Shown: positions 32,958 through 47,044 of the stretch, piece after piece
Layout of the letters: each line of letters starts with the position of its first letter
How positions within the stretch are numbered: position 1 is the stretch's first letter
Assembly (NCBI RefSeq): GCF_900095135.1
Contig: NZ_LT605205.1
Location: 1,116,001-1,180,000 of the forward strand
Source: Proteiniphilum saccharofermentans
Lineage (GTDB): Bacteria > Bacteroidota > Bacteroidia > Bacteroidales > Dysgonomonadaceae
Direction: 5' to 3'
DNA length: 64,000 bases
The notes under the pieces: model-generated
The model's database searches: none
The model's input: the letters and a program-made list of their open reading frames with translations, nothing else
What the model was told of the DNA's origin: nothing
Translations under genes and position numbers: made by a program

Positions 32958-33044
32958 AGACTATTTCATTTTGTAAACATAATATCAACATGATCTTTCA
33001 ATGCATATCCCCGGTATGTAACTTCCATCTTGATCCGGTGTTTT

Positions 33045-33091
33045 CAAAGTTACGACATCCGAAGTTGTTTATATCGCTTTTTCCGGAAAAA
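33045..33091 (-). promoter_or_regulatory. Candidate promoter and palindrome for the large pectin operon
   Basis: TAACTTTG on the minus strand (33045-33052) fits TAnnTTTG and lies 88 bp before the start of the GH105-CE12 gene. No TTTG is seen 19-21 bp further upstream, as in activator-dependent promoters. Instead a perfect 14-bp palindrome, TTTTTCCGGAAAAA, lies at 33078-33091. Together they are a plausible regulated promoter for the 24-kb unit. Confidence 0.42.
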
Positions 33092-33311
33092 TTTCCATTA
33101 AATTGCTGCCAAAATAAAAGCCGGGGTGCAGATGTTATTTTGTGTAGTCGTAAACAGGCCGGGAGGGTAGGACATTGTTTATAGGGATCAGTAAGCAGAC
33201 GAGGATATAGCTATATCGATATTCCATTTCAAGAAATTCCAAAAATCATCACATCTTTTTTAAGCGTATACATGAAGTTCAGATATTTAATCGGTTATAA
33301 TCAAGATTATA

Positions 33312-33370
33312 AAGGAAGAGTGCCTGCTCGAAGGCGATTTTTGAGTATACGTAATGGGGCACCCTTCCTT
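33312..33370 (-). terminator. Hairpin after SusD pair 2, probable terminator or attenuator
   Basis: On the minus strand AAGGAAGGGTGCC (33358-33370) pairs with GGCACTCTTCCTT (33312-33324): 13 pairs with one G-U, loop 33 nt. It is 75 bp past the SusD stop. The following run is only TTTATAATC, so it is a weak intrinsic terminator. A separate palindrome TTATAATC-AA-GATTATAA (33295-33312) abuts it. The remainder of the 487-bp gap shows no coding frame. Confidence 0.5.
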
Positions 33371-33444
33371 TTTCTTTATTATTAATGTATCATATTAACA
33401 TATCCTTAATTATAACTTTTAAAGCCTGTGTTACAATGAAATTA

Positions 33445-35586
33445 TTACCATCCCGGGTTCTGAAAGGCTGCTTTTTGACTGTCAGTAAGCGGTGAACCGT
33501 CGTTTTGGGTCAAACCATCGATGAAGGTTTGAGGTATTGGTCTAAGAACATGTTTCTCTGCAATATTGGGAGCCGCTTGCGGATTAAACGCTTTGGCGCG
33601 TTTTATTAACAAGCCGGTACGGCTCAATTCTTCCCAACGATTCCATTCACCGTTCAATTCACGGGTACGCTCGTTAAAAATAAAGTTCAACATACGGTCA
33701 TAATCACTCGTCACACCCAATGCAGAAAGAATGCTTTCATCTTCGGCAGGTAATTGGTTGTAATCACTGATTTGTAATGAAGATGCCGCTGTTGTCCTTT
33801 CAATTCCCGTAGACAGATAATAAGTGTTCCGGGACAGATATATATTACCGGCTGCGTCCTTAAGATTACCATTGTCATATCCCGGATGGGAATTTCTAAA
33901 CCAATTCACATAATTATCCGTTTTGCCGTTTTTGGCATAATTAGTCGTTGTTGAATGAAGCGGATTGCTTAACGGAAAAGCAATAGAACCATCGACATAC
34001 AATTCACGATCTTCACCAGCTTTCCATTGACCACGTGCACGCAATATGTTTACTGTTGCAATGGCTGCCTGATAATTTCCCTGTCGGACTTGTGCCTCGG
34101 CTTTAATCAGGTATGTTTCGCCCGTACGGGCCATCGTTACATCGCGGAAAGCATCTCCTCCTTCTGCCGTGCGTGTTCCGTCCTGCGTTTTATTTAATCC
34201 GCAGAATACATTGGACTTGGTGGCATCGCCGTTACTGTTGTAATTAGGCAATACATATTGTCCATTCAGGAACAACGGAAAAGCATTCGGCACCCATTTG
34301 TTTGTTTCCGGATTAATAAATGTACTTCCGCCGGTAACAGGGCGTCCGAATTTACCATACGGTTCTCCGTTAAAACGGTTGTCGTCTTTTTTATTCAGAA
34401 TAAAGATAATACCCTCGTCCCCTAAGTCAACGGCACTTTCACCGAATGATTCATTTAATTCGTTATTTACTATGTTATTCACGCCATACACCGTCCTGAA
34501 TGATTTCCACAAACGAGCGTCACTAATATTGTCATACGTGGTGTAATTATATTCGGTAGGACGGCAACGTTGAAAATCCTGCCCCCCGATATGCGGTCCA
34601 CGACTTACCCAGCCACCGCTAAACGTGTTAAACTGAGGAGTAAAATAGGAATGTGTACGATTGCCAAAACGTCCTTTGCTAGACGCATCGGCATTGTGCT
34701 GGGCCGACATCAATATTTCGGGTAATCCTTCGTTTGGATTATCCACGCCTGTCCAACGGGCAAACAGATCCCAATAGTCGCTTGCCAACGGACGGGCTGC
34801 TATTACTTCGTCACAAAGTGAAATGCACTTGGTAAGATCTGCTTCAATATAATTAGAGTTCCAACTACTGTTTCTTTCCGAAGCCCTGAATAGCAAAGCT
34901 TTCGCCCAGAAATGGGCCGCAGCATATTTTGTCCATGTACCCACACCCCTCCAGTTTGTAGTTGGAAGCAGTGCATATGCGTTCTCAAAATCAGAAATAA
35001 TCTGGGCCATGGTTTCTTCTTCATTGGCACGTTCAAAGTATCGTACTACTCCACTCAGCGGTTCTGTTTGGACAACTACGCCACCGTATTGGGCAAACAG
35101 TCGGTAATAGTTATAACCACGCAGGAGATAGGCTTCTCCCATGCACCTGTTACGGATTTCTTCATTTGAAATTTTATCTCCGTTGGCTATTAGTAAATTG
35201 GCGGAAGAAATGCCGTAATACATCTGATTCCATAAACCGTCTACCGGAGGGCAGTTATTATTGGCGGCACCGGTTGCAACCGTAGCATTTGAAGGATTTA
35301 AACGGTTGTCGTAAGTGTTCCACGGTTCACTGGTTAAATCTGCACCGTTAGTGAACTCGTCGGTACCGTAAAGCGTAATACCGTAGGCCCATTCATAACC
35401 AAAATGCCAGCGAATATTTCCATAAAGAGAGGTGGCTAATGCTGTAAGACCTTCCTCTGTTTCAAAATATTGTGTGGTATAGGCAGTGGTATTTTCTTCG
35501 TAAAGAAAATCATCACCACAAGATGAAAAACCAATAGAAAACGATAAAGCTGTGGCAATCAATATTTTATTATATAAATATTTCAT
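33445..35586 (-). CDS. SusD/RagB-family outer membrane lipoprotein (pair 2), long form
   Basis: 713 residues, clearly longer than the usual 500-600. The lipoprotein signal ends SIGFSSCGDDFL. Family features include AYLLRGYNYYRLFAQYGGV near residue 155, TYLIKAEAQVRQGNYQAAIATVNILRARG near 505, FIFNERTRELNGEWNRWEELSRTG near 635, and the ending LRPIPQTFIDGLTQN...QNPGW. Extra length is mostly in loops between residues about 250 and 460. Such insertions typically shape the ligand site. It pairs with the SusC gene 29 bp upstream. Confidence 0.95.
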   Translation of the reverse strand: MKYLYNKILIATALSFSIGFSSCGDDFLYEENTTAYTTQYFETEEGLTALATSLYGNIRWHFGYEWAYGITLYGTDEFTNGADLTSEPWNTYDNRLNPSNATVATGAANNNCPPVDGLWNQMYYGISSANLLIANGDKISNEEIRNRCMGEAYLLRGYNYYRLFAQYGGVVVQTEPLSGVVRYFERANEEETMAQIISDFENAYALLPTTNWRGVGTWTKYAAAHFWAKALLFRASERNSSWNSNYIEADLTKCISLCDEVIAARPLASDYWDLFARWTGVDNPNEGLPEILMSAQHNADASSKGRFGNRTHSYFTPQFNTFSGGWVSRGPHIGGQDFQRCRPTEYNYTTYDNISDARLWKSFRTVYGVNNIVNNELNESFGESAVDLGDEGIIFILNKKDDNRFNGEPYGKFGRPVTGGSTFINPETNKWVPNAFPLFLNGQYVLPNYNSNGDATKSNVFCGLNKTQDGTRTAEGGDAFRDVTMARTGETYLIKAEAQVRQGNYQAAIATVNILRARGQWKAGEDRELYVDGSIAFPLSNPLHSTTTNYAKNGKTDNYVNWFRNSHPGYDNGNLKDAAGNIYLSRNTYYLSTGIERTTAASSLQISDYNQLPAEDESILSALGVTSDYDRMLNFIFNERTRELNGEWNRWEELSRTGLLIKRAKAFNPQAAPNIAEKHVLRPIPQTFIDGLTQNDGSPLTDSQKAAFQNPGW

Positions 35587-35615: not shown

Positions 35616-38600
35616 TTAAAATCCTATTTCAATACCGAATGTAACTCCCCTGTTATAGTAAGTTGTACCAAAGTCAAGGTCGAGGAAATCTATGGAAGAA
35701 TACAAGTTACCCGGATTGCGTAATTGAGTATAGACTTTCAGATTATTGACCCCGATTGTTTTACAAATATTGTTCGGCAAGAAGTATCCCAAAGAGATAT
35801 TTCTAAATTTGACGAAAGAAGCTTCCTTAAAGCCGAGCAGACTGGAGTACGCATCGCCACTTACACCCGGTGTTCCCGTGTAAACCGGCTTCTGGTATTC
35901 GGCTCCTGTATTATCCGGAGTCCAATAATCGATCTTGCGTTGGTTGGGGATGCCGTTTTGAGTTTCACCTCCGGTTGATACCAAATAATTCATACGTCCG
36001 TAGAGCTCAATATTTAACTCGATACCTTTATAATTGAAAGTATTACTCCATCCCAAAGTCCAGCGTGGATTGCGATTTCCTAAAACTACACGATCCTCAC
36101 TGTCAATTATATAATCGCCGTTCTGATCGACAGGCCTTACACTACCCGCAGTGAATTTTTCACCATTTTCATTGAATTTAGCCATTTCCGCAGCATCACT
36201 TTCCTGCCATAGACCGGCATTGTCATATCCGTAATAGACACTAATAGATTGTCCGATAAACCATGAGTTATCGACCATATCATTTTTACCGTTAGCCAAT
36301 TCTACAATTTCCTCTTTTTGCCAGGCTGCGTTCAATGTAGAATTCCAATTAAAGTTTCTTGTTTCAACCGGAATAATATTCAATGAAACGTCTACACCTT
36401 TATTCTTGGTTTTGCCGACGTTAGCCATTGTACTGCTGTAACCGGTCAGGGTAGGGATAGACATTTGCATCAGCAGGTCTTTTGTATTTGACTTGTACAG
36501 GTCAATCGCACCTCCGATTCGTCCTCTCAGGAAAGTGACGTCAAGCCCGAGATTCCATTGAGTGGTTTTTTCCCATTCAAGCGCCGGGTTAGCCATCAAT
36601 ACGGAGTTTGAAAAATAATAGGGTTCGTTGGTCCCGTAAGCCAATGCATTACCGGTACCACCAAAAGGAATATAAAAAGAACGGATACTTCCTAAAGTAG
36701 CATAAGCATCAATTGCGGAGTTCCCGGTCATCCCCATACCCAAGCGGAGCTTCAACTGATCTAACCATGAAATATCCTGCATAAATGCCTCCTGATCCAA
36801 TCGCCATCCCAAAGCCGCACTGGGGAAAAATGCCCATTTATGGCCTGCCGAAAGGACGGATGATCCGTCGTAACGACCCGAAACAGTCAGTAAATAACGG
36901 TCTTTAAATGAATAATTAATACGCCCCATGTAAGAAGCAAGTTGCGATTGAGTTAATCCTGTACCCATAGAAGCTCTCGAAGTCGAATTGGTAATATCCA
37001 CAGAACCCATATTGTTCCATTTATAACTTTCTTTGGGAATATTCTCTGCACTCATACTGGCGGTTTCAATATCGTATTTAGAGGCAGATTGCAGTAATGT
37101 CACATCAAACCTATGGTCATTTATCGTTTTATTGTAAGCCAGGATATTGTCCAATACCCATGAGAATCTTCTGTCATAATTCCAGGAAGCATAACTTGTG
37201 CTGCCCTGACGTACAGCTGAAGACTTATCGATATAAATGCCACGGCGATAATATCTGAAATCAGGGCCGAAATTGCTTCTAAAACTCAACCCTTCTAATG
37301 GATTCCATATATTACCAAGATCGATATTTGCATAAAAACTACCTAAAACACGCAATGTTTGCCTATGCTCATTCGATTTTGTCCACTCATCAATAATGGT
37401 ATACACTCCGTTCAGATTTCCCGGAGTCAATATAATTTCACCATTGTCATCATAAGGTAATGCGACATTGAATATTTGTTTTGCTGCCGCATAAATTTCC
37501 GTAGGACCGGAATTTGAGGATTGTCCTGTTCTGGAGAAACCATAGCTTTGGTTACTCCAGGCAGCATTGATTGAACCACCTATGTCAAACCATTTTGTCG
37601 GACTGATATCAGTAGACATGGTTGCATTGTATCTTTGAAATGATTGTCCTATTTGAGTTCCTTCATTGTTTAAATAACCGAGTGAAAAGAACGACTTGAT
37701 CCTATCGGTTCCACCGCCTGCACTGATGGTGTGCTCCTGGGTTACCCCGGTTTGAGTAACAAAATCCGTCCAGTCCGTATTCGTAACTTTTGAACTGTCC
37801 CAACTGCCGCCCGACCAACCTTTCATAACGTTGTCGTAAGCTGTTTTATCTAATGCACTGAAGAATATTTCATCTTGTTCTTTAGAGGGTTGGTTACCAG
37901 TGGAGTAATCGCTGGGATTGGCATTGTAATGAGCCCAGCGCCGCCAGGTAATGTATTCGCTGGCGCTCATTGCAGGAGCCAAATCGTGTATTTTTTCGGA
38001 AGTGAAAGTTCCTGAATAATTCAGTTGGAAAGAGCCTGATTTACCTCGTTTTGTTGTTACGAGAATTACCCCGTTAGCGCCGCGCGAACCGTAAATAGCA
38101 GTGGAAGATGCGTCTTTCAGCACATTAATACTTTCAATATCACGGGGGTTAATACTTTCTATACCACCGGAACTTAATACTACTCCATCAACCACATAAA
38201 GAGGAGCATTGGTCGCGTTTAAAGACCGATTACCACGAATACGAATCGACCCTAGTTCTCCTGGACGTTGGGCGGAAGTAATATCCACACCAGCCACTTT
38301 ACCCTGTAGAGCTTCAAAAGCATTGGTTACCGGTTTTGTTGACAGATCCCTGGCTGAAACAACTGCTAAAGCTCCGGTCACATCACTCTTACGCATGGTT
38401 CCATAACCGACTACGATAACCTCATCCAATAATTCCGTATCTTCTTCGAGTATTACGTTTATGGATGTCCTTCCGTTAACAGAGATCGATTGTGAACGCA
38501 TACCCACGTAAGACACTTCCAATGTCCCGTCGGAAGGTACGTTGGTTAGTACGAATCCTCCATCCACATCGGTAATTGTTCCGGTCGTTGTCCCCTGTAC

Positions 38601-38747
38601 CTGAACAGTCACACCGATCAAAGCTTCTCCCGATTGGTCGGTAACTGTGCCTCTTACGGTAAGATTCTGGGCAAATGCACCTACGGAAATTGCCCATATC
38701 AGTACGGATAATATTCCTTTCGTCAGATTAAAAATTTTTCTTTTCAT
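35616..38747 (-). CDS. SusC/RagA-family TonB-dependent transporter (pair 2)
   Basis: 1043 residues from the chosen Met (MKRKIFNLTKG), four codons inside the longest frame; the signal peptide ends SVGAFAQ. Order of parts: carboxypeptidase-regulatory-like domain (TVRGTVTDQSGEALIGVTVQV), DEVIVVGYGTMRKSDVTGA, plug with LYVVDGVVLSSGG and DASSTAIYGSRGANGVILVT, then the barrel ending GIEIGF. It should import an oligosaccharide captured by the 713-residue SusD. Upstream is a 767-bp gap containing a duplicated regulatory block shared with the GH2 gene. Confidence 0.96.
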   Translation of the reverse strand: MKRKIFNLTKGILSVLIWAISVGAFAQNLTVRGTVTDQSGEALIGVTVQVQGTTTGTITDVDGGFVLTNVPSDGTLEVSYVGMRSQSISVNGRTSINVILEEDTELLDEVIVVGYGTMRKSDVTGALAVVSARDLSTKPVTNAFEALQGKVAGVDITSAQRPGELGSIRIRGNRSLNATNAPLYVVDGVVLSSGGIESINPRDIESINVLKDASSTAIYGSRGANGVILVTTKRGKSGSFQLNYSGTFTSEKIHDLAPAMSASEYITWRRWAHYNANPSDYSTGNQPSKEQDEIFFSALDKTAYDNVMKGWSGGSWDSSKVTNTDWTDFVTQTGVTQEHTISAGGGTDRIKSFFSLGYLNNEGTQIGQSFQRYNATMSTDISPTKWFDIGGSINAAWSNQSYGFSRTGQSSNSGPTEIYAAAKQIFNVALPYDDNGEIILTPGNLNGVYTIIDEWTKSNEHRQTLRVLGSFYANIDLGNIWNPLEGLSFRSNFGPDFRYYRRGIYIDKSSAVRQGSTSYASWNYDRRFSWVLDNILAYNKTINDHRFDVTLLQSASKYDIETASMSAENIPKESYKWNNMGSVDITNSTSRASMGTGLTQSQLASYMGRINYSFKDRYLLTVSGRYDGSSVLSAGHKWAFFPSAALGWRLDQEAFMQDISWLDQLKLRLGMGMTGNSAIDAYATLGSIRSFYIPFGGTGNALAYGTNEPYYFSNSVLMANPALEWEKTTQWNLGLDVTFLRGRIGGAIDLYKSNTKDLLMQMSIPTLTGYSSTMANVGKTKNKGVDVSLNIIPVETRNFNWNSTLNAAWQKEEIVELANGKNDMVDNSWFIGQSISVYYGYDNAGLWQESDAAEMAKFNENGEKFTAGSVRPVDQNGDYIIDSEDRVVLGNRNPRWTLGWSNTFNYKGIELNIELYGRMNYLVSTGGETQNGIPNQRKIDYWTPDNTGAEYQKPVYTGTPGVSGDAYSSLLGFKEASFVKFRNISLGYFLPNNICKTIGVNNLKVYTQLRNPGNLYSSIDFLDLDFGTTYYNRGVTFGIEIGF

Positions 38748-39067
38748 CTCATTTCTCAATTTGTTTAGATTAAATACTAATTCATTTTCAATTTGGGCTA
38801 TTACTGAAATATAATCATTATGATTTTGTGTGAATTACATATAATATTCTAATGGTAAATGATAAAGTTGTTATAGCGTCCCTTTTCTCTTTTCAGTTCT
38901 TTCAAGTAATAACTTCAGCCATTATTTAAAGTATTAAATTTGAAAAAAACTCTATGGTTAGATAAAATTCCGATTATACATTTTATTACAACTTAAGTCG
39001 TTAACCAATAAATCAAATCATTATAATTATAATAATAATTGATGGAAATTTTGAAAATTTATCGTTG

Positions 39068-39209
39068 CAAAAATAGCATTGAAGAAGGGAAACCACCTGT
39101 AATTTCCGTTCGATTTCATGTAAAATTGTACACATTAAAGCATCCTGAACATTATTACATGTTTTGTACAATATTCATTATTGCTGAATAAGCGCTTCAT
39201 GAATAATGG
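39068..39209 (-). promoter_or_regulatory. Duplicated regulatory block, copy A, upstream of SusC pair 2
   Basis: On the minus strand TATTTTTG (39068-39075) fits the -7 box TAnnTTTG. From 39089 to 39209 the sequence aligns without gaps to 42564-42684, with about 20 differences in 121 positions. The -7-like box is 21 bp from the block start in both copies. Within the block TGTAATTT (39098) and TGTAAAAT (39119), as read on the plus strand, form a direct repeat with exactly 21-bp period, as for AraC-type binding half-sites. No -33 TTTG is present, consistent with activator dependence. The start would lie roughly 320 bp before SusC, so the leader is long. The rest of this gap (38760-39060) is very AT-rich and non-coding. 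Confidence 0.65.
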
Positions 39210-39398
39210 ATTAACAATATTTAAGTTAGCAGATGGTGCTGTTGAGCGTAACTTCAAATCGGCGCATTGATATTTCTATTACGGATAAAAAACCGGAATA
39301 TTGTGCACGGGCAGAACTGTAGTATGAAAAAAGAAAAGTGCGTGTTTTTCTAATTTTGTAGAATTCTTGTCAGGGTAACCGTATACTCAGGCATAAGA

Positions 39399-39424
39399 AA
39401 AGCAAAGGTGGGAGCCTTTGCTTT
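39399..39424 (-). terminator. Intrinsic terminator after the GH2 gene
   Basis: A perfect 10-bp stem AAAGCAAAGG/CCTTTGCTTT with a 6-base loop, 91 bp after the GH2 stop. On the minus strand it is followed by TCTTATG after four T, a moderate U-tract. It separates the GH2 gene from the SusC pair 2 promoter region. Confidence 0.72.
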
Positions 39425-39514
39425 AACGGATGCAGACGTGGAGTTTGTGACCGGTATAAATTACCATTGGACAGAATTATTGATTTTTCAAAAATGGAAA
39501 TGAATGTGCCGAAT

Positions 39515-42361
39515 TCATAAATGGCGCCCGCTGAAATCAAACCACAGGTTCATGTGTACCCCTTCGTCTCCTATTTTTATCCGGATATTGGAGGGCTGGC
39601 TGTTCGGACCTTGTTGTGAAACCGGTTTGAAACAGCGTATGGCCGGTATTTCATAGAGGAACGATATATCTCCTTCCGGAAATGCGGGATTGGCACTCCA
39701 ATTGGTTTTGTTGTCTGCCGGTTCCGCCGGAGTAAAGACGCGCATAAACACGCCGTCGCTTGCGCTGTAGACCGTAAAAGGAGACTCGGAAGTGAGGAGT
39801 GTGCCCCAATACAGGTTGCCGTGATAGCCTTTGAATTCGGGATAAACCATATTCTCAAAGTCGGCTCCGGTAATGGTATTGTTGTAATCTTTATTCCAAA
39901 TCCCGTAATTGGCTCCGCGGATACGGTTCCGCCAAACACGGTACGGGCCGCGCCCGAACCATTCCATGCTCTTTACGTTTTCTTCGGGATAAGAGAATGT
40001 GAACCCGAAAATGGGTATATTGTCTTCAAAAACAGCTTCATCGAATCCTATTCCCGCCCTTGCGTTGTTCAGCGTAACGGCGTGCATGTTCAACAGTCCG
40101 GCAGGTGTCATTTCCCAGCGGATGGAATCGACCGCACCTGCATAAAAGACCGTAAAAACGGCGTTGTCGCCTTCCTGACGATGTTTTACCTCTTTTACAC
40201 GGGCTTTCATGCCGACAGGCAACGGCCCGTTATTGAATGATAGGGTACCGTTGTTATTCCGTACTTCGTGGATCAGCCCGTCTGTGGTGTTGAAACTGAC
40301 GATTACGCCCGGGGCCGACAGTTTTATTTTATCACCTTCTTGGCGAACCGTGGCTGTACCCGGTTGAATGGCTTGTCTCAACTGCTTTTGCGTGTATTCT
40401 CCGGCATACCGGATAGGCCATGTCCACGTACATATCTCTTTATTGTGACTGTCCCATGCCTTTATTTCCAGAATATCCCCGTCGAAAAAATTGGGCGGCA
40501 CACTTATTTTTGCCCTGCCGGCTTCGCGCGGGTCAATGGCGGGAAGATGGACGTCTCCGGAGGAGATTACTTCCTGTCCGGTTCTCCCGCTTAACGGAGA
40601 GGGGGCGCTCAGCACCTTGTATTCCATCCGGCAGGTGTTCAGGTTGGAAAACAAATAGTCGTTGCGAACGAGAAATTCTCCGTTAAATGAAGATGTAATA
40701 AAGAGCGGCTCGAACCGGATAGGTGCCCAGACTTCACGAACGGTATAGTAACTTCCCTCCTTTTGACGGTAGGGGCCGAGAATACCGTCGGTTCCATTGG
40801 AGCCGTCCGAATCCAGGAGCCCGCCCTTGTCTGTACGTTTTACGGCGTTGTCCGAAAAATCCCACATGAATCCTCCTGCAAAAAGCGGGTGGGCGGTATA
40901 TCTGTCCCAGAAATCTTCCAGACCTGCCCCGTGCCCCTGGTCATACATCCCGTGCTGGAATTCGGTCGGCATAAACACCTTGTATCCGTTTGTAAAACGG
41001 GCGATTCCCGTCAGATAAGTCGGGTAATGGTGGGTATCCAAATTGTCAAAATCAGCCCAGGCATGGATTACGTGACGTTTTTGCGGATCGTATTTGCGGT
41101 ACAGCGGGTTGAGGTCATAATTGAAACCGCCTTCGTTTCCATTGCTCCACAGGATCAGGGAGGGGTGGTTGACATCGCGGGTAACCAGCGACTTCACTAA
41201 TTTTGATCCGATTTCGGTGCCATATGAATTTTGCCATCCGGCCAGCTCGTTCACGACAAAAATTCCGAGCGAGTCGCAGACATCCATAAAGTGCTTATCC
41301 GGAGCGTAGTGGAAGCGTACGGCATTCATATTCATTTCTTTAATCAGTTCCCCGTCCATCAGGCTGATCTCCCTGCTGGTAGTGCGCCCTCCGTCGGGAT
41401 GGAACGAATGGCGGTTGATCCCTTTCAACACAACCTTTGTGCCGTTTACATAGAGGCCGTCTTTCACGCGGAATTCGACGGTGCGAAACCCGATCCGTTC
41501 TTTATGCACATGCACGGTGCTGTTGTTTTTATCAATAAGCTCCAGTTCTATATTATAGAGGTTGGGGGTTTCCGTGTTCCACTGTTTAACAACATCCCAC
41601 CTGAAATTAACTTCATGTTTGGTACCTGTTTTTAATGAAGCGGATTGTTTTTTATAAGTCGATGGTTGATCGTTACCGTACAGTTTCACGGGAGTGATAT
41701 TGGCGTTTATCTTATATCCTTCTTCCAACGGGGTAGTGAAAACATCCGCATAAAACGAGCCGTCGGCTTTCGCGTCTACGGCAATCCGTTCGATATTCAC
41801 TGCGGGTTTCGCTTCCAGATAGACCGGGCGGTAAATTCCACCGAAGATCCACCAGTCGGCTTTCCGCTCGGCTGCATTCACTAACCGGTCGGACGACTCT
41901 TTGCTGACTTTTACCTCCAGGTTGTTCTTACCGGTCTTGATCTTATCGGTGATATCATACGAAAAACGGTTGAAACCTCCCTGATGGATATCTCCGGCAA
42001 GGCTTCCATTCACGAGAACTTCCGTGTCGGTCATCACCCCTTCAAAAACAATGACTATCTGCTTTCCTTCCCAGTCGGACGGTATCAGGAAAGAGGTCCG
42101 GTAGATACCCGTTTCCGTTGGCGGTGTGGCTCCCTTGATGGTGTACCACCTGCCGTAACTGTATTCGCCGAAACCTTGCAGTTCCCATTGGGAAGGGACT
42201 TCTATTTTCGACCATTTTTGGCTGTTCATACCGTCACTGCAATAGAAATCCCATGTTTTGGTATCTCCCAGGCCTGTTCCGGAGAGATAAAGCGTTTCCG
42301 TTTGCTGTGCCGCTGCATGGAGGGAGAGGAACAGCGTTAAAAGTAAAATCCCTTTCTTCAT
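39515..42361 (-). CDS. GH2-family beta-galactosidase, secreted
   Basis: 948 residues from ATG 42359-42361, chosen because it begins a clean signal peptide (MKKGILLLTLFLSLHAAAQ); the longest frame has nine more codons. LacZ-like architecture: sugar-binding jelly roll (WELQGFGEYSYGRWYTIKG), Ig-like domain, TIM barrel with GINRHSFHPDGGR and WSNGNEGGFNYD (acid/base Glu about 410), and MPTEFQHGMYDQG (nucleophile Glu about 467). The C-terminal beta-sandwich has MEWFGRGPYRVWRNR. It removes beta-galactose, probably from RG-I galactan side chains. It appears to be a single-gene unit: terminator at 39399 and its own promoter block at 42543-42684. Confidence 0.93.
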   Translation of the reverse strand: MKKGILLLTLFLSLHAAAQQTETLYLSGTGLGDTKTWDFYCSDGMNSQKWSKIEVPSQWELQGFGEYSYGRWYTIKGATPPTETGIYRTSFLIPSDWEGKQIVIVFEGVMTDTEVLVNGSLAGDIHQGGFNRFSYDITDKIKTGKNNLEVKVSKESSDRLVNAAERKADWWIFGGIYRPVYLEAKPAVNIERIAVDAKADGSFYADVFTTPLEEGYKINANITPVKLYGNDQPSTYKKQSASLKTGTKHEVNFRWDVVKQWNTETPNLYNIELELIDKNNSTVHVHKERIGFRTVEFRVKDGLYVNGTKVVLKGINRHSFHPDGGRTTSREISLMDGELIKEMNMNAVRFHYAPDKHFMDVCDSLGIFVVNELAGWQNSYGTEIGSKLVKSLVTRDVNHPSLILWSNGNEGGFNYDLNPLYRKYDPQKRHVIHAWADFDNLDTHHYPTYLTGIARFTNGYKVFMPTEFQHGMYDQGHGAGLEDFWDRYTAHPLFAGGFMWDFSDNAVKRTDKGGLLDSDGSNGTDGILGPYRQKEGSYYTVREVWAPIRFEPLFITSSFNGEFLVRNDYLFSNLNTCRMEYKVLSAPSPLSGRTGQEVISSGDVHLPAIDPREAGRAKISVPPNFFDGDILEIKAWDSHNKEICTWTWPIRYAGEYTQKQLRQAIQPGTATVRQEGDKIKLSAPGVIVSFNTTDGLIHEVRNNNGTLSFNNGPLPVGMKARVKEVKHRQEGDNAVFTVFYAGAVDSIRWEMTPAGLLNMHAVTLNNARAGIGFDEAVFEDNIPIFGFTFSYPEENVKSMEWFGRGPYRVWRNRIRGANYGIWNKDYNNTITGADFENMVYPEFKGYHGNLYWGTLLTSESPFTVYSASDGVFMRVFTPAEPADNKTNWSANPAFPEGDISFLYEIPAIRCFKPVSQQGPNSQPSNIRIKIGDEGVHMNLWFDFSGRHL

Positions 42362-42542
42362 GTTTATTTTATTTTTAGTTATTTGCATTTTTGAATGGAT
42401 ACATCCCGTTTAAAACTGCTGTTTGTTTAGCGCATTCCCGATTTTCTTCCCGTTAACCGTTACGTTTTTCACGACAAAAACAGATCGCACCGCAGATCGA
42501 TGTTGCACATGGTCACATGGCAATTTTAAAAATTTGTTATTA

Positions 42543-42684
42543 CAAAATTACGGTTTGAAGTGTGAAACCACCTGTAATTTCCGTGCGATTCTATGTAAAA
42601 TAGTACACATTAAAGCATCTTGCATATTAATGCAGGTCTAGTATTATATTCACTGTTGCCGAATAAGCGCCCTATGAATAATGG
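42543..42684 (-). promoter_or_regulatory. Duplicated regulatory block, copy B, upstream of the GH2 gene
   Basis: Minus-strand TAATTTTG (42543-42550) is an exact TAnnTTTG -7 box, 182 bp before the GH2 start. The block 42564-42684 matches copy A (39089-39209) at about 83 percent over 121 ungapped positions. The 21-bp-period direct repeat is conserved (TGTAATTT at 42573, TGTAAAAT at 42594, plus strand). The block begins 43 bp after the HTCS stop, so it lies between the regulator gene and the GH2 gene. The rest of this 366-bp gap shows no coding frame. Confidence 0.68.
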
Positions 42685-42727
42685 GTGAATGGTATCAAAC
42701 TATTTATTCGGTGCTGTTTTTTGTTCT

Positions 42728-45700
42728 TCAACTAATCATTTGCCCGTATTTTGAAGGGGAGCAGTTAAAATGTGTTTTGAAGCACTTGCTGAAATAGAAA
42801 GGATCTTCAAATCCGACTTTGTAAGACACTTCTGCGACCGTCAGATCCTCTTCGAGAAGATATTTGGCAGCCCTGTTAAGCCTTTTTATCTTGATCAGTT
42901 CGTTGGGTGACATTCCTGTTATTCCTTTTACTTTTTTATAGAAAACAGTACGCCTTTGCTTTGCCAGCTCTGCAAATTTATCTACGGAAAACAGCGTATC
43001 GCTAAGGTGTTCTTCTAGGATACTGTCGATCAATTGAAGGAATTTTTTGTCCTGGTCGGTGGAGGTTATTAAATTTCCATCGAAAACATGATCTTTGGAG
43101 AATCGTTTCTTTAATTGTTCGCGTTGTTCTATCAGCTTAAATACCCTGGTCACTAAGTATTTTATACTGAAAGGTTTGGTTATATATGCATCGGCACCGC
43201 TTTGGATACCCTCCACCTGATGATCAAGCGAAGAATGGGCGGTCAGCATGATAATAGGGATATGACATGTCTCAAACTCTTCTCTTAGTTTACGGGTGAC
43301 TTCAAATCCGTCCATTCCCGGCATCATCACATCACAAATGATCATGTCAGGATTTGTTTGTATTGCTTTTTCCAAACCCGATTTGCCTTCTTCTGCCGTA
43401 TCCACCATAAAATATTTACTGAATTCATCTACCAGGAAATTACGGATATCATCATTGTCATCAATAATCAACAATTTGTAATTCGACAATGTGGTATCAT
43501 CGATTTCCGGCAACCGGATATTCTCCATTATTGGACTGGACAGTGATAACTTATTATTGTCACACTCAGAAGGCAGTATATCGTGGTGCAGGGGGGTAAT
43601 AAAATTTTCACCTTCATATATTTGGGCATTTGTGGATAATTCAACATTAAACAAAGAGCCTTGATCCTGATTGCTCTCATACCAGATCCTACCTTTATGT
43701 ACCTCCACAAATTCTTTAACCAAAGATAAGCCGATACCTGTACCTTCAGATGAGAAGTTAATCTGCATAAAACTGCTAAAGAGAATATGTTGTTTTTCTT
43801 TCGGTATTCCAATTCCGTTATCTTTAACGGATATTAAACATGTTTCCTGAGTCGGATTAAATTTTAGGGCTAATTCAATTTCTCCTCCCCGGGGGGTATA
43901 TTTAAACGCATTGGACAATAGGTTGTAGATGATCTTGTCCACTTTCCGACTGTCGATAAACATCTTAAATTGATTCTCTTCACAATAAAATGTATAGTGT
44001 ATATTCTTTTGAGCCGCTGCTATCTGGAAGTTGTTGAAAATTTCTTTTGAAAACTCAACGATATCTGTTTCTTCCAGGTCAAGAGTGAGTATGTTATTCT
44101 GTAATTTCCTGAATTCCAGCAGTTGGTCGATCAGACGGGTTAATATTGTCGAATTTCTATCCAGCACATTGAGTTGCTGTCTTATAGGTTCGGGAGTATC
44201 ATTCAGGCTGTTCAAATTTTCCACGGTTCCCCTTATCAATGTCAGCGGTGTACGGAACTCATGGGATATATTGGTAAAGAAGCGGAGCTTATGGTTTGTC
44301 AGTTCCTTTTCTATCTCTATGTTATTGTTTAATTTGTTGAATTTTCTGATTAGCCTTATAACTATATATACCATAGTTAAGGCTAATACCAAATACACCA
44401 TATAGGCATACCACGATGCCCATATCGGGGGTGTTATTTCTATGTTTAAACTGGTTACTTCCTCATTCCATATACCGCTGCTGTTGGTTCCCCTTACTAA
44501 AAACAGATATTTTCCCGGAGGCAGGTTTTTATAATCTGCACTATTTGTAGAGCTTACTATACTCCATGTTTTATCGTATCCGGTCAGCATGTAGGTATAT
44601 TTGTTATTGGGGGAATCTTTCAGATCGAGTGCAGCAAATTCGATCCTTATACTATTTTCCTTATGATTTAACTTTATATCGGTTGCATAGCTTATTGCGG
44701 TTTTTACGGACGGATTTCTGGTATTTCCGCTAAGCGACTGATTGTTTACATAGAAGCCTGTTAATGTTACATCGCAGACATTCGTGCCGGGTACAAATAA
44801 TTCCGGGTTAAAATAGAGCAGGCCGTTGAGGCTGCCCCATAACATATATTTGTTGGTAGAATAGATATTCGCATTCTCATTGTATTGGTTCCCATGCGAC
44901 TTTTCTGCAAACTGATAGACCATGGAGGATTGATTGTCTTTATCGAATTTGGTTATGCCGCTCTCCGTACTGATCCATAAATTGTTGTTTTCATCTTCCA
45001 GTATTCCTGTAATAAAATTACCGGATAAACCATCTTCAACCGTATATGCTTTAAATGACTCTTCTTCGGTCTGCGTGGGAGGGATGTATTTATTCAATCC
45101 TCCTCCCGCAGTGCCTATCCATATTGTACCTTCGCTATCCTCAAAAATTGTTTTTATATCATTGCAATTTAATCCATTCTGACCATCAAACAGATTCATC
45201 TTATTGGCGGTATAAGCCTGAGGGTCGTTTATCAACTTATCGGGATCAAAGCGCAGTATACCATCCCGACTTCCTACCCAAAATATTCCGTTGGAATCCT
45301 GTAAGATACATCTTATATAGCTTCTATTGCCTTCATTGTGAAAGAAATATTTAAAATGAATATCATCCAACGTCTCTTCGGCCAGGATCAATCCTCTACC
45401 AAACGATCCCAGCCACATACGGTCTTTATGATCTTTCATGATGCAAAATACCGCATCTACGGTCTGATTGACGGAAAAATGGTGTAATTGTTCTTTTGTT
45501 TGGGGATCGATTATATATAATCCCTTGCCTTTGGTGCCAACCCAAAGCCTGTCAGATGCATCCTGGGTAATTGCATAGGGATTAATGTCTTCGTAAACAG
45601 ATTTGCCGGTTCTCAAATCATTATCGTACAAATAAAGATTGCCGTTTTTCGTTCCAAACCATATATTGTTAAAATTATCTTCATATATGGATCGTACATT

Positions 45701-47044
45701 ATTATTTTTTCCGACAGAAGATTCTTCTTCTGGCTTAATAGTCTGTACATGGTAATCCGATTCAACGACTTTTATGATACCTGCATATTCACTACCAATC
45801 CATATATTACCGTTCCTATCCTCGGTTATGGAAAGGAGATAATCGGAGGCCGGACTATTTTTATTGGAGGAATACTTGAAATGCTGTAAATTTTCAGAAT
45901 CAGGTTCGTAAAGAAAAATACCATTTCCATATGTTGTGATCCAAATATAATTTTTTGAATCGATAAATACATTATAGCGTTCCAGATCAATTGATTTTAA
46001 AATATCATTAGGAATCAGGGGAAGTTTCTTCAGTTTTTGGTTTGATATATTGTAATACCACATATATCCCGAATGATTATACAACCATAAACCGCCATTC
46101 TTATCCGTAATTAAATTGATATTGCCTCTTTGCATATCTTTATCGTTCATCCAGACAGAGATCTCCAATTGTTTATTCCTTACGTTATAATTTAAAAGCT
46201 TATTGTTTTCAGTAATGATGAGTAATTCCGAATCCGAAATAACGGCAATATCCGTAAAGAGATCATAGAATTGGGTATCTATTTCGTTGAATGTTTCTTT
46301 CGATATGTCATATTCTATAATAAAACGTTCATCTGTAATAAAATAAATCTTGTTCTTTTGCTCTACGGCATTTATGAAAGTATTGTTTTTCTTGTATGAT
46401 GTAAACTCTCTTCCGTCCTTTATCCCCAATACACAACCGTCACCTCCAATCCAGACGGTAGATTTAGAATCCTCGAAAAGAAACGTGCAATCAATTTTGG
46501 GTTCCGTGAAAAACTGATTTGTAACAAAGGATTGGCCTCTTTTTATTATTTGCACACAGCCGTTTATATTGCCCCATAACCAGATATCGCCATTTTCAGC
46601 TTCATAATAATCCGTATAATAAAGCGATTGATTGTTGTGTAATCTTATTCTGTTTTTGCTGTAAAACAAATCTTTATAGGGATCGTAACAACAAAATTCA
46701 TTATCGTATGTTTTTATCCAGATATAGCCATCACGGTCCAGATGTACATCCTTTATCTGATGGTCAATCAAAGAATAGGGATTGCCCAGCTCAGGTAAAA
46801 ATGTAACAAACTTATACCCGTCATATTTATTTAATCCCCCTAAAGTTGCCGCCCAGATAAATCCTTTCTTATCCTCAATAATGGCTCTGACCGTGTTTTG
46901 AGACAAACCTTTATTTGTGTTGATTTGATGAAACCGGATATCGCCTCTTACATTAGAAAACAGAGCCAAACCATGCATTAAAATGCAGGATAATATAATT
47001 AATTCCTTCATGTATTTATCTCTATATTTCATCAGGCACAACAA
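42728..47044 (-). CDS. Hybrid two-component system (HTCS) sensor-regulator
   Basis: 1438 residues; Met 12 (47011) may be the true start because it opens a signal peptide. The periplasmic sensor is a double propeller of about 14 Reg_prop repeats (residues about 30-770, with GLSQNTVRAIIEDKKGFIW, GLNKYDGYKF and many xGxIWIGT-type strands), then a Y_Y_Y domain. One membrane helix lies near 870 (WYAYMVYLVLALTMVYIVI). The histidine kinase has FTNISHEFRTPLTLI (His about 928) and an ATPase domain (YNLLSNAFKYTP, GTGIGLSLVKEF). The receiver has DVMMPGMDG (Asp about 1238), and an AraC-type HTH ends the protein (VAEVSYKVGFEDPFYFSKCFK). HTCS proteins bind an oligosaccharide and activate nearby PULs. The matching blocks upstream of SusC pair 2 and GH2 are its likely targets. 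Confidence 0.96.
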   Translation of the reverse strand: MLCLMKYRDKYMKELIILSCILMHGLALFSNVRGDIRFHQINTNKGLSQNTVRAIIEDKKGFIWAATLGGLNKYDGYKFVTFLPELGNPYSLIDHQIKDVHLDRDGYIWIKTYDNEFCCYDPYKDLFYSKNRIRLHNNQSLYYTDYYEAENGDIWLWGNINGCVQIIKRGQSFVTNQFFTEPKIDCTFLFEDSKSTVWIGGDGCVLGIKDGREFTSYKKNNTFINAVEQKNKIYFITDERFIIEYDISKETFNEIDTQFYDLFTDIAVISDSELLIITENNKLLNYNVRNKQLEISVWMNDKDMQRGNINLITDKNGGLWLYNHSGYMWYYNISNQKLKKLPLIPNDILKSIDLERYNVFIDSKNYIWITTYGNGIFLYEPDSENLQHFKYSSNKNSPASDYLLSITEDRNGNIWIGSEYAGIIKVVESDYHVQTIKPEEESSVGKNNNVRSIYEDNFNNIWFGTKNGNLYLYDNDLRTGKSVYEDINPYAITQDASDRLWVGTKGKGLYIIDPQTKEQLHHFSVNQTVDAVFCIMKDHKDRMWLGSFGRGLILAEETLDDIHFKYFFHNEGNRSYIRCILQDSNGIFWVGSRDGILRFDPDKLINDPQAYTANKMNLFDGQNGLNCNDIKTIFEDSEGTIWIGTAGGGLNKYIPPTQTEEESFKAYTVEDGLSGNFITGILEDENNNLWISTESGITKFDKDNQSSMVYQFAEKSHGNQYNENANIYSTNKYMLWGSLNGLLYFNPELFVPGTNVCDVTLTGFYVNNQSLSGNTRNPSVKTAISYATDIKLNHKENSIRIEFAALDLKDSPNNKYTYMLTGYDKTWSIVSSTNSADYKNLPPGKYLFLVRGTNSSGIWNEEVTSLNIEITPPIWASWYAYMVYLVLALTMVYIVIRLIRKFNKLNNNIEIEKELTNHKLRFFTNISHEFRTPLTLIRGTVENLNSLNDTPEPIRQQLNVLDRNSTILTRLIDQLLEFRKLQNNILTLDLEETDIVEFSKEIFNNFQIAAAQKNIHYTFYCEENQFKMFIDSRKVDKIIYNLLSNAFKYTPRGGEIELALKFNPTQETCLISVKDNGIGIPKEKQHILFSSFMQINFSSEGTGIGLSLVKEFVEVHKGRIWYESNQDQGSLFNVELSTNAQIYEGENFITPLHHDILPSECDNNKLSLSSPIMENIRLPEIDDTTLSNYKLLIIDDNDDIRNFLVDEFSKYFMVDTAEEGKSGLEKAIQTNPDMIICDVMMPGMDGFEVTRKLREEFETCHIPIIMLTAHSSLDHQVEGIQSGADAYITKPFSIKYLVTRVFKLIEQREQLKKRFSKDHVFDGNLITSTDQDKKFLQLIDSILEEHLSDTLFSVDKFAELAKQRRTVFYKKVKGITGMSPNELIKIKRLNRAAKYLLEEDLTVAEVSYKVGFEDPFYFSKCFKTHFNCSPSKYGQMIS

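What the first reader, a model, noticed from the sequence alone, without database searches (positions are those of the whole stretch)
39068..42684. A 120-bp regulatory block duplicated upstream of SusC pair 2 and the GH2 gene
Blocks 39089-39209 and 42564-42684 align without gaps, about 20 differences in 121 positions, although nothing around them is similar. In both, a -7-like box lies exactly 21 bp from the block edge and a TGTAA-type direct repeat has exactly 21-bp period. The genes downstream are unrelated (transporter, galactosidase), so shared descent of coding sequence does not explain it. The adjacent HTCS has an AraC-type domain, which prefers such spacing. This looks like a defined HTCS operator that makes two units one regulon.
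Basis: partly seen in the sequence, partly recalled or inferred. Interest (0 to 1): 0.78.

Follow-up and report, generated by a model that had tools for sequence, protein, structure and literature searches.

The report
Copied sensor-controlled promoter in pectin locus
Two unrelated pectin-use genes carry copies of the same promoter, with the probable docking site of the neighbouring sugar-sensing regulator, so they are probably switched on together; it is a clear example of a known kind of control.

Summary
In detail: 39089-39209 and 42564-42684 match ungapped at 101 of 121 positions (best of 300 shuffles 60). The similarity runs on through a Bacteroidota -7 box (131 of 169), and BLAST finds it nowhere else in the 4.41-Mb genome. 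The extra length is probably common descent of one copied promoter; the functional core is about 35 bp (39097-39131, 42572-42606) plus the -7 box. The long block is absent from relatives, but a short operator recurs beside orthologues (49-62%) of the adjacent HTCS: CAT-N6-GNAC-N7-CAT/G, its last C 24-25 bases before TAnnTTTG (here N8). A matrix tested leave-genus-out finds it between genes in 11 of 12 orthologous loci, against 2 of 8 loci with distant HTCSs. Made from relatives only, and allowed one extra base, it ranks the two copies first and third in the window. Direct repeats about 21 bp apart are the published form of predicted HTCS operators (PMC3878776). What is added here is this operator's sequence, its 20- or 21-bp period, and a case of a regulon apparently growing by promoter copying. 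HTCS binding and induction are inferred, not shown.

The parts
39045..39213 (-). Copy 1 of the duplicated promoter (upstream of SusC)
   Evidence: 131 of 169 identical to copy 2; only two copies in the genome
42520..42688 (-). Copy 2 of the duplicated promoter (upstream of GH2)
39097..39131 (-). Operator core copy 1: GTAC-N7-CAT-N6-GAAC-N8-CAG; protomer sites about 39118-39131 and 39097-39111
   Evidence: 0-mismatch pattern hit; top hit of a matrix made from relatives, 23.6 bits
42572..42606 (-). Operator core copy 2: GTAC-N7-CAT-N6-GCAC-N8-CAG
   Evidence: 0-mismatch pattern hit; third hit of the matrix, 16.8 bits
39067..39075 (-). -7 box TATTTTTGC of the SusC promoter
   Evidence: fits TAnnTTTG (consensus in PMC7366714, passage read); TA lies 24 bases after the C of the last CAG
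42542..42550 (-). -7 box TAATTTTGT of the GH2 promoter
   Evidence: same offset as copy 1
39134..39163 (+). Inverted operator-like site inside copy 1, function unknown
   Evidence: 17.0 bits with no extra base, second hit of the matrix in the window; no TAnnTTTG within 40 bases downstream
42609..42638 (+). Counterpart of the inverted site in copy 2, degenerate
   Evidence: 7.5 bits, background level
39171..39208 (-). Distal patch shared by the two copies, role unknown
   Evidence: only the two copies in the genome at up to 3 mismatches
39399..39424 (-). Hairpin followed by T-rich stretch, probable terminator of the GH2 transcript
   Evidence: -15.9 kcal/mol, z -4.0; not listed by the consensus terminator scan
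42728..47044 (-). HTCS: Reg_prop/Y_Y_Y sensor, HisKA, HATPase_c, receiver, AraC-type HTH
   Evidence: Pfam
39515..42388 (-). GH2 gene downstream of copy 2
   Evidence: Pfam
35616..38759 (-). SusC gene downstream of copy 1
   Evidence: Pfam
33445..35586 (-). SusD gene following SusC
   Evidence: Pfam

Best explanation
Both blocks are copies of one activator-dependent promoter. The neighbouring HTCS, phosphorylated when its periplasmic sensor binds a pectin (rhamnogalacturonan-type) oligosaccharide, probably binds as a dimer to the tandem site GTAC-N7-CAT-N6-GNAC-N8-CAG on one face of the DNA and activates RNA polymerase at the TAnnTTTG box 24 bases downstream, filling the role of a weak -33 element. 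The SusC promoter is probably the ancestral copy; about 170 bp were copied in front of the GH2 gene, putting it in the same two-promoter regulon. Shown here: the duplication, the -7 geometry, and recurrence of the operator core with HTCS orthologues. Inferred: binding by this HTCS, activation rather than repression, the ligand, and the direction of copying.
For: Duplication and uniqueness. Operator recurs between genes in 11 of 12 orthologous HTCS loci leave-genus-out at >=14 bits (22 intergenic, 2 coding hits in 34.9 and 195.5 kb; permuted matrices 0.4 and 1.1), against 2 of 8 distant loci. Leave-locus-out, a site lies upstream of the gene best matching the window's SusC in 10 of 12 orthologous loci. 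A matrix from relatives only ranks copies 1 and 2 first and third in the window. HTH-domain identity to the window HTCS is 0.56-0.80 in 11 orthologous loci (L167 is cut by its contig end) and 0.42-0.53 in the 8 distant ones. Direct repeats at an average of 21 bp are the published form of predicted HTCS motifs (PMC3878776, passages), HTCSs bind near the PULs they control by ChIP-seq (PMC3404733, passages), and receiver-HTH fragments bind PUL susCD promoters in vitro (PMC11253607, passages).
Against: With the relatives' spacing the own minus-strand operators do not score; one extra base between the halves must be allowed. Copy 2 (16.8 bits) does not beat all shuffles: 2 of 30 shuffled windows had a higher maximum. 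The best hit with no extra base is an inverted plus-strand site without a promoter. The operator is not significantly better conserved between the copies than the upstream part (4 of 35 against 18 of 82 mismatches, p 0.21). Same-genus relatives lack the orthologue (best 39%), so conservation in close strains could not be tested. Several test loci are near relatives of each other (L163 with L164; L154, L169, L170), so 12 loci are fewer independent cases.
Confidence: 0.8

Rival explanations
1. The site is read by another regulator (a CRP-like global activator such as Cur/BT4338, or another HTCS of this genome), not by the adjacent HTCS.
For: A strong site (23.0 bits) lies before a SusC homologue beside a distant HTCS in L161, and weaker ones in L156 and L172. 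The own genome has many HTCS-like places: 67 first-look candidates, of which few were scored.
Against: A global activator should have many sites; the operator plus -7 pattern occurs without mismatch only twice in the genome, and places with 2 mismatches (3) do not exceed the reversed control (4). The site follows orthologues of this HTCS: 11 of 12 against 2 of 8 loci.
Confidence: 0.12
2. The whole 121-bp block is one composite operator: besides the proximal tandem site, the inverted site and the distal patch bind further HTCS dimers or a second factor and are kept by selection.
For: Identity runs over the whole block; an inverted site of 17.0 bits lies in copy 1; relatives of two genera have a second, same-sense site 100-160 bp further upstream (L163, L164, L167, L165, L166).
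Against: In relatives two operator promoters of one locus share the core only (upstream identity 0.23-0.36 in 26 pairs). The inverted site has decayed in copy 2 (7.5 bits). Unevenness of divergence along the block is not significant (p 0.077; p 0.21). The relatives' second sites lie near the HTCS start codon and may serve that gene.
Confidence: 0.12
3. Plain recent DNA duplication without regulatory meaning.
For: Divergence is fairly even over the block.
Against: The shared core matches a motif derived from other genera and lies at the same distance from a -7 box.
Confidence: 0.04
4. The block is an RNA leader element (riboswitch or antisense target).
For: Some 170 to 300 bases separate the -7 boxes from the start codons.
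Against: Nearly all of the block lies upstream of the -7 box and so outside the transcript; no Rfam family reaches its gathering score in 38600-43000.
Confidence: 0.02

Closest known systems
Predicted HTCS operators of Bacteroides thetaiotaomicron, Ravcheev et al. 2013 (PMC3878776; passages read)
   Same: Direct repeat of two conserved sites at an average centre distance of 21 bp, upstream of PUL genes next to the HTCS, conserved among species
   Different: Here another HTCS orthologue group in Dysgonomonadaceae; half-sites resolved into GNAC and CAT boxes; 20 bp in relatives, 21 bp here; whole promoter duplicated. Their logos were not available to me, so motif identity was not compared.
BT0366 and BT1754 binding mapped by ChIP-seq, Lynch and Sonnenburg 2012 (PMC3404733; passages read)
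   Same: An HTCS binds DNA near the PUL it controls
   Different: No motif in the passages read; BT0366 also binds near PULs it represses elsewhere, whereas no exact further site is seen in this genome
BT4124 and BT4663 receiver-HTH fragments on susCD promoters bt4114 and bt4662 (PMC11253607; passages read)
   Same: Same protein class acting on SusCD promoters; binding depends on phosphorylation or is much enhanced by it
   Different: Other HTCSs and glycans; in vitro binding measured there, only predicted here

Membership tests
HTCS-type operator (direct repeat) | Two conserved half-sites in direct orientation, about 21 bp apart | tested here: met
   21 bp in both copies; 20 bp in the 13 aligned sites of relatives
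HTCS-type operator (direct repeat) | Conserved with the cognate HTCS across genomes | tested here: met
   11 of 12 orthologous loci against 2 of 8 distant loci at >=14 bits
HTCS-type operator (direct repeat) | Bound by the HTCS DNA-binding domain | not testable with these tools
   needs EMSA or footprint
HTCS regulator protein | Periplasmic sensor, histidine kinase, receiver and AraC-type HTH in one chain | tested here: met
   Reg_prop, Y_Y_Y, HisKA, HATPase_c, Response_reg, HTH_18
Bacteroidota primary-sigma promoter | TAnnTTTG at -7 | tested here: met
   TATTTTTG and TAATTTTG at the same offset; consensus from PMC7366714, passage
Bacteroidota primary-sigma promoter | TTTG near -33 | tested here: inconclusive
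   By eye GGTTTC, not TTTG, lies about 20 bases upstream of both -7 boxes; no separate test. The passage read notes that -33 could not be identified in Flavobacterium johnsoniae
Cur/CRP-like regulon site | Many sites over the genome | tested here: not met
   two exact sites only; the Cur motif itself was not compared

The most novel reading that the evidence does not exclude
Each HTCS protomer reads a two-box site (GNAC-N7-CAT), the dimer tolerates 20 or 21 bp between protomers, and in this lineage the operator gained a third, inverted site upstream. The regulon grew by copying a whole promoter, upstream element included, in front of an enzyme gene, where relatives seem to have made short sites separately at each promoter.
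Probability: 0.3. Interest if true: 0.45.

Novelty: new member of a known kind. Interest (0 to 1): 0.38.

Why it matters
It gives a concrete, testable operator for one orthologous group of HTCSs outside Bacteroides, with natural variants. It also offers a clean promoter pair for asking how PUL regulons grow: by copying a promoter or by evolving short sites one at a time. In the passages read, HTCS motifs are mostly predicted and base-level recognition is little measured.

Tried and rejected
The full block as an old conserved element: 0 of 100 other family genomes match it (at most 8 first-look candidates scored per genome), and a 37-base consensus scan of 107 upstream regions in 20 loci found nothing convincing. 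That scan was blind because the own operator is one base longer than in relatives.

The distal patch (39171-39208) as a second factor's site: not supported. It occurs only in the two copies, and the unevenness of divergence is not significant.

RNA element: no Rfam family at its gathering score in 38600-43000. The consensus scan for promoters (19 against 23.2 expected) and terminators (7 against 10.2) was uninformative and did not list the hairpin at 39399-39424.

My error: searches used seven instead of six unspecified bases and so missed the own sites. One search repeated the own-spacing form correctly; the form with the relatives' spacing was not repeated in the own genome.

Two loose window patterns gave near-chance counts (4 against 2.45; at up to 2 mismatches: 16 against 10.9). 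Only the two 0-mismatch rows, the two blocks, are telling.

The scan of named genomes kept 80 of 378 stretches. I used L007, and L008 (the same locus as L166) for a first look; the other 78 were not used.

Papers: seven searches. The listings showed no paper whose title or abstract start describes this operator or an HTCS motif from Dysgonomonadaceae; most listed papers were not opened, so this is not proof that none is in print. PMC11501099 (passages) concerns duplication of a gene under a ribosomal promoter, a different thing. PMC12125979 (passages) concerns a Vibrio XylR-type regulator.
Full report
Observation. The two blocks are as described: 101 of 121 positions identical without gaps, far above the 60 reached in 300 shuffles of the two intergenic regions. 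The similarity continues on the gene side through a -7 box, giving 131 of 169 identical over 39045-39213 and 42520-42688. BLAST of the own genome (4,414,963 bases, one contig) finds these two places only, and a 31-base core pattern with up to 3 mismatches also finds only these two, control 0.

Setting. The relevant genes run on the minus strand: HTCS 42728-47044, GH2 39515-42388, SusC 35616-38759, SusD 33445-35586. Around them are GH28, GH88, GH106, a rhamnogalacturonan lyase (RGL11_C), GDSL esterase and L-rhamnose mutarotase genes, which points to rhamnogalacturonan-type pectin. A hairpin at 39399-39424 (z -4.0; not listed) probably ends the GH2 transcript, so the two blocks head separate units. 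The genome belongs to the family of Dysgonomonas macrotermitis: G032, listed as same family, has an HTCS at the same place on a contig of the same length (790,997) as NZ_FQUC01000001.1.

Relatives. The long block was found in 0 of the 100 other family genomes searched. HTCS orthologues of 57-62% identity occur in 9 of them; 12 of 101 genomes, own included, pass E<=1e-250, two same-genus genomes only with 39% matches. I fetched 19 stretches around HTCSs and used L007, 20 loci in all. Twelve have an HTCS at 49-62% (L007, L154, L155, L163-L171) and eight at 36-42% (L156-L162, L172). L163 and L164 are near relatives of each other, as are L154, L169 and L170.

Operator. Upstream regions of the orthologous loci share one arrangement: CAT (or TAG, TAT), six bases, GNAC or GNAT, seven bases, CAT or CAG, and then 24-25 bases from that C to TAnnTTTG. 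In 13 sites lined up from relatives five positions are invariant: the G and second A of GNAC, a T two bases before the last C, and that C and A. The sites were chosen and aligned by eye, nine with the help of the -7 box and four by alignment alone, so I tested with whole genera left out, using the relatives' spacing. At >=14 bits there are 22 intergenic and 2 coding hits in 34.9 and 195.5 kb, and 11 of 12 orthologous loci have an intergenic hit; column-permuted matrices give means of 0.4 and 1.1. At >=13 bits it is 23 and 6 hits and 12 of 12 loci; at >=18 bits 15 and 0, and 9 of 12 loci. For the distant set at >=14 bits there are 2 intergenic hits in 2 of 8 loci; there only L172 had its genus left out. 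Leave-locus-out at >=13 bits, with one extra base allowed, 33 hits fall in the 12 orthologous loci, 4 of them flagged coding (one of these, in L154, because my reading frame for the HTCS was drawn too long). The gene best matching the window's SusC has a site upstream in 10 of 12 (L007 only at 13.4 bits); in L165 and L168 the sites lie before other genes.

Own window. A matrix made only from relatives, allowed one extra base between the halves at a cost of 1 bit, ranks copy 1 first (23.6 bits) and copy 2 third (16.8) in 64 kb on both strands. Second is a plus-strand site, 39134-39163, inside copy 1 (17.0). Maxima of 30 shuffled windows were 10.2 to 19.3; copy 1 exceeds all, copy 2 exceeds 28 of 30. 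With 0, 1 or 2 extra bases, only 1 puts both blocks in the two top places; with 0 the top hit is the plus-strand site. The operator plus -7 pattern without mismatch occurs twice in the whole genome; with 2 mismatches there are 3 further places against 4 for the reversed control, so no wider regulon is seen with this pattern.

What the length means. In 9 relative loci, 26 pairs of operator sites within a locus (2 further pairs were cut by locus ends) resemble each other over the core (0.47-0.67) but not upstream (0.23-0.36); here upstream identity is 0.72, core 0.90, downstream 0.67. Copying of a promoter explains this best. The operator is not significantly less diverged than the upstream part (4 of 35 against 18 of 82, p 0.21; window test p 0.077), so I do not claim function for the whole block. 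In 29 loci with GH2 homologues (of 30 given, the own one left out; two hold under 140 bases upstream) the matrix gave 2 hits at >=14 bits, both by their position inside the GH2 gene. SusC homologues in relatives do have the site, so the GH2 gene probably received the copy. This direction is inference.

Mechanism. By analogy with published HTCS work (PMC3878776, PMC3404733, PMC11253607; passages read), sensor binding should lead to phosphorylation of the receiver, freeing of the HTH domain and dimer binding to the tandem site next to the -33 region. Two helix-turn-helix units per AraC-type domain would fit two boxes about one helical turn apart; that is recalled knowledge of the AraC family, not a test. 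Sequence matches in the PDB cover the sensor (4a2l, 3v9f) and the receiver-HTH part (12aw). Activation rather than repression is assumed.

Verdict. A well-supported HTCS operator pair of the published direct-repeat kind: ordinary in class, with a useful sequence definition for a new orthologue group and a neat case of promoter copying. Direct binding and induction remain untested.

Noticed in passing
39134-39163 (+) and 42609-42638 (+): An inverted operator-like site inside copy 1 (17.0 bits), decayed in copy 2 (7.5 bits), with no -7 box downstream.
   Followed up: partly
L163:7737-7766 (-), L164:12492-12521 (+), L167:4197-4226 (+), L166:12296-12325 (+), L165:12544-12573 (+): Second, same-sense operator-like sites about 40-110 bp from the HTCS start codon, without a -7 box at the usual distance; possibly HTCS autoregulation.
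   Followed up: no
44746-44771 (-): A third TGTAA-N16-TGTAA, inside the HTCS coding sequence, probably chance.
   Followed up: no
L161:18167-18196 (-): A strong site (23.0 bits, -7 box at the usual distance) before a SusC homologue beside an HTCS only about 37% identical to this one; the operator may reach beyond the close orthologues.
   Followed up: no
32958-33444: A gap of 487 bases between the SusD and GH88-GDSL genes, in which the matrix has no hit at >=13 bits; whether the downstream enzymes belong to the SusC unit is open.
   Followed up: no
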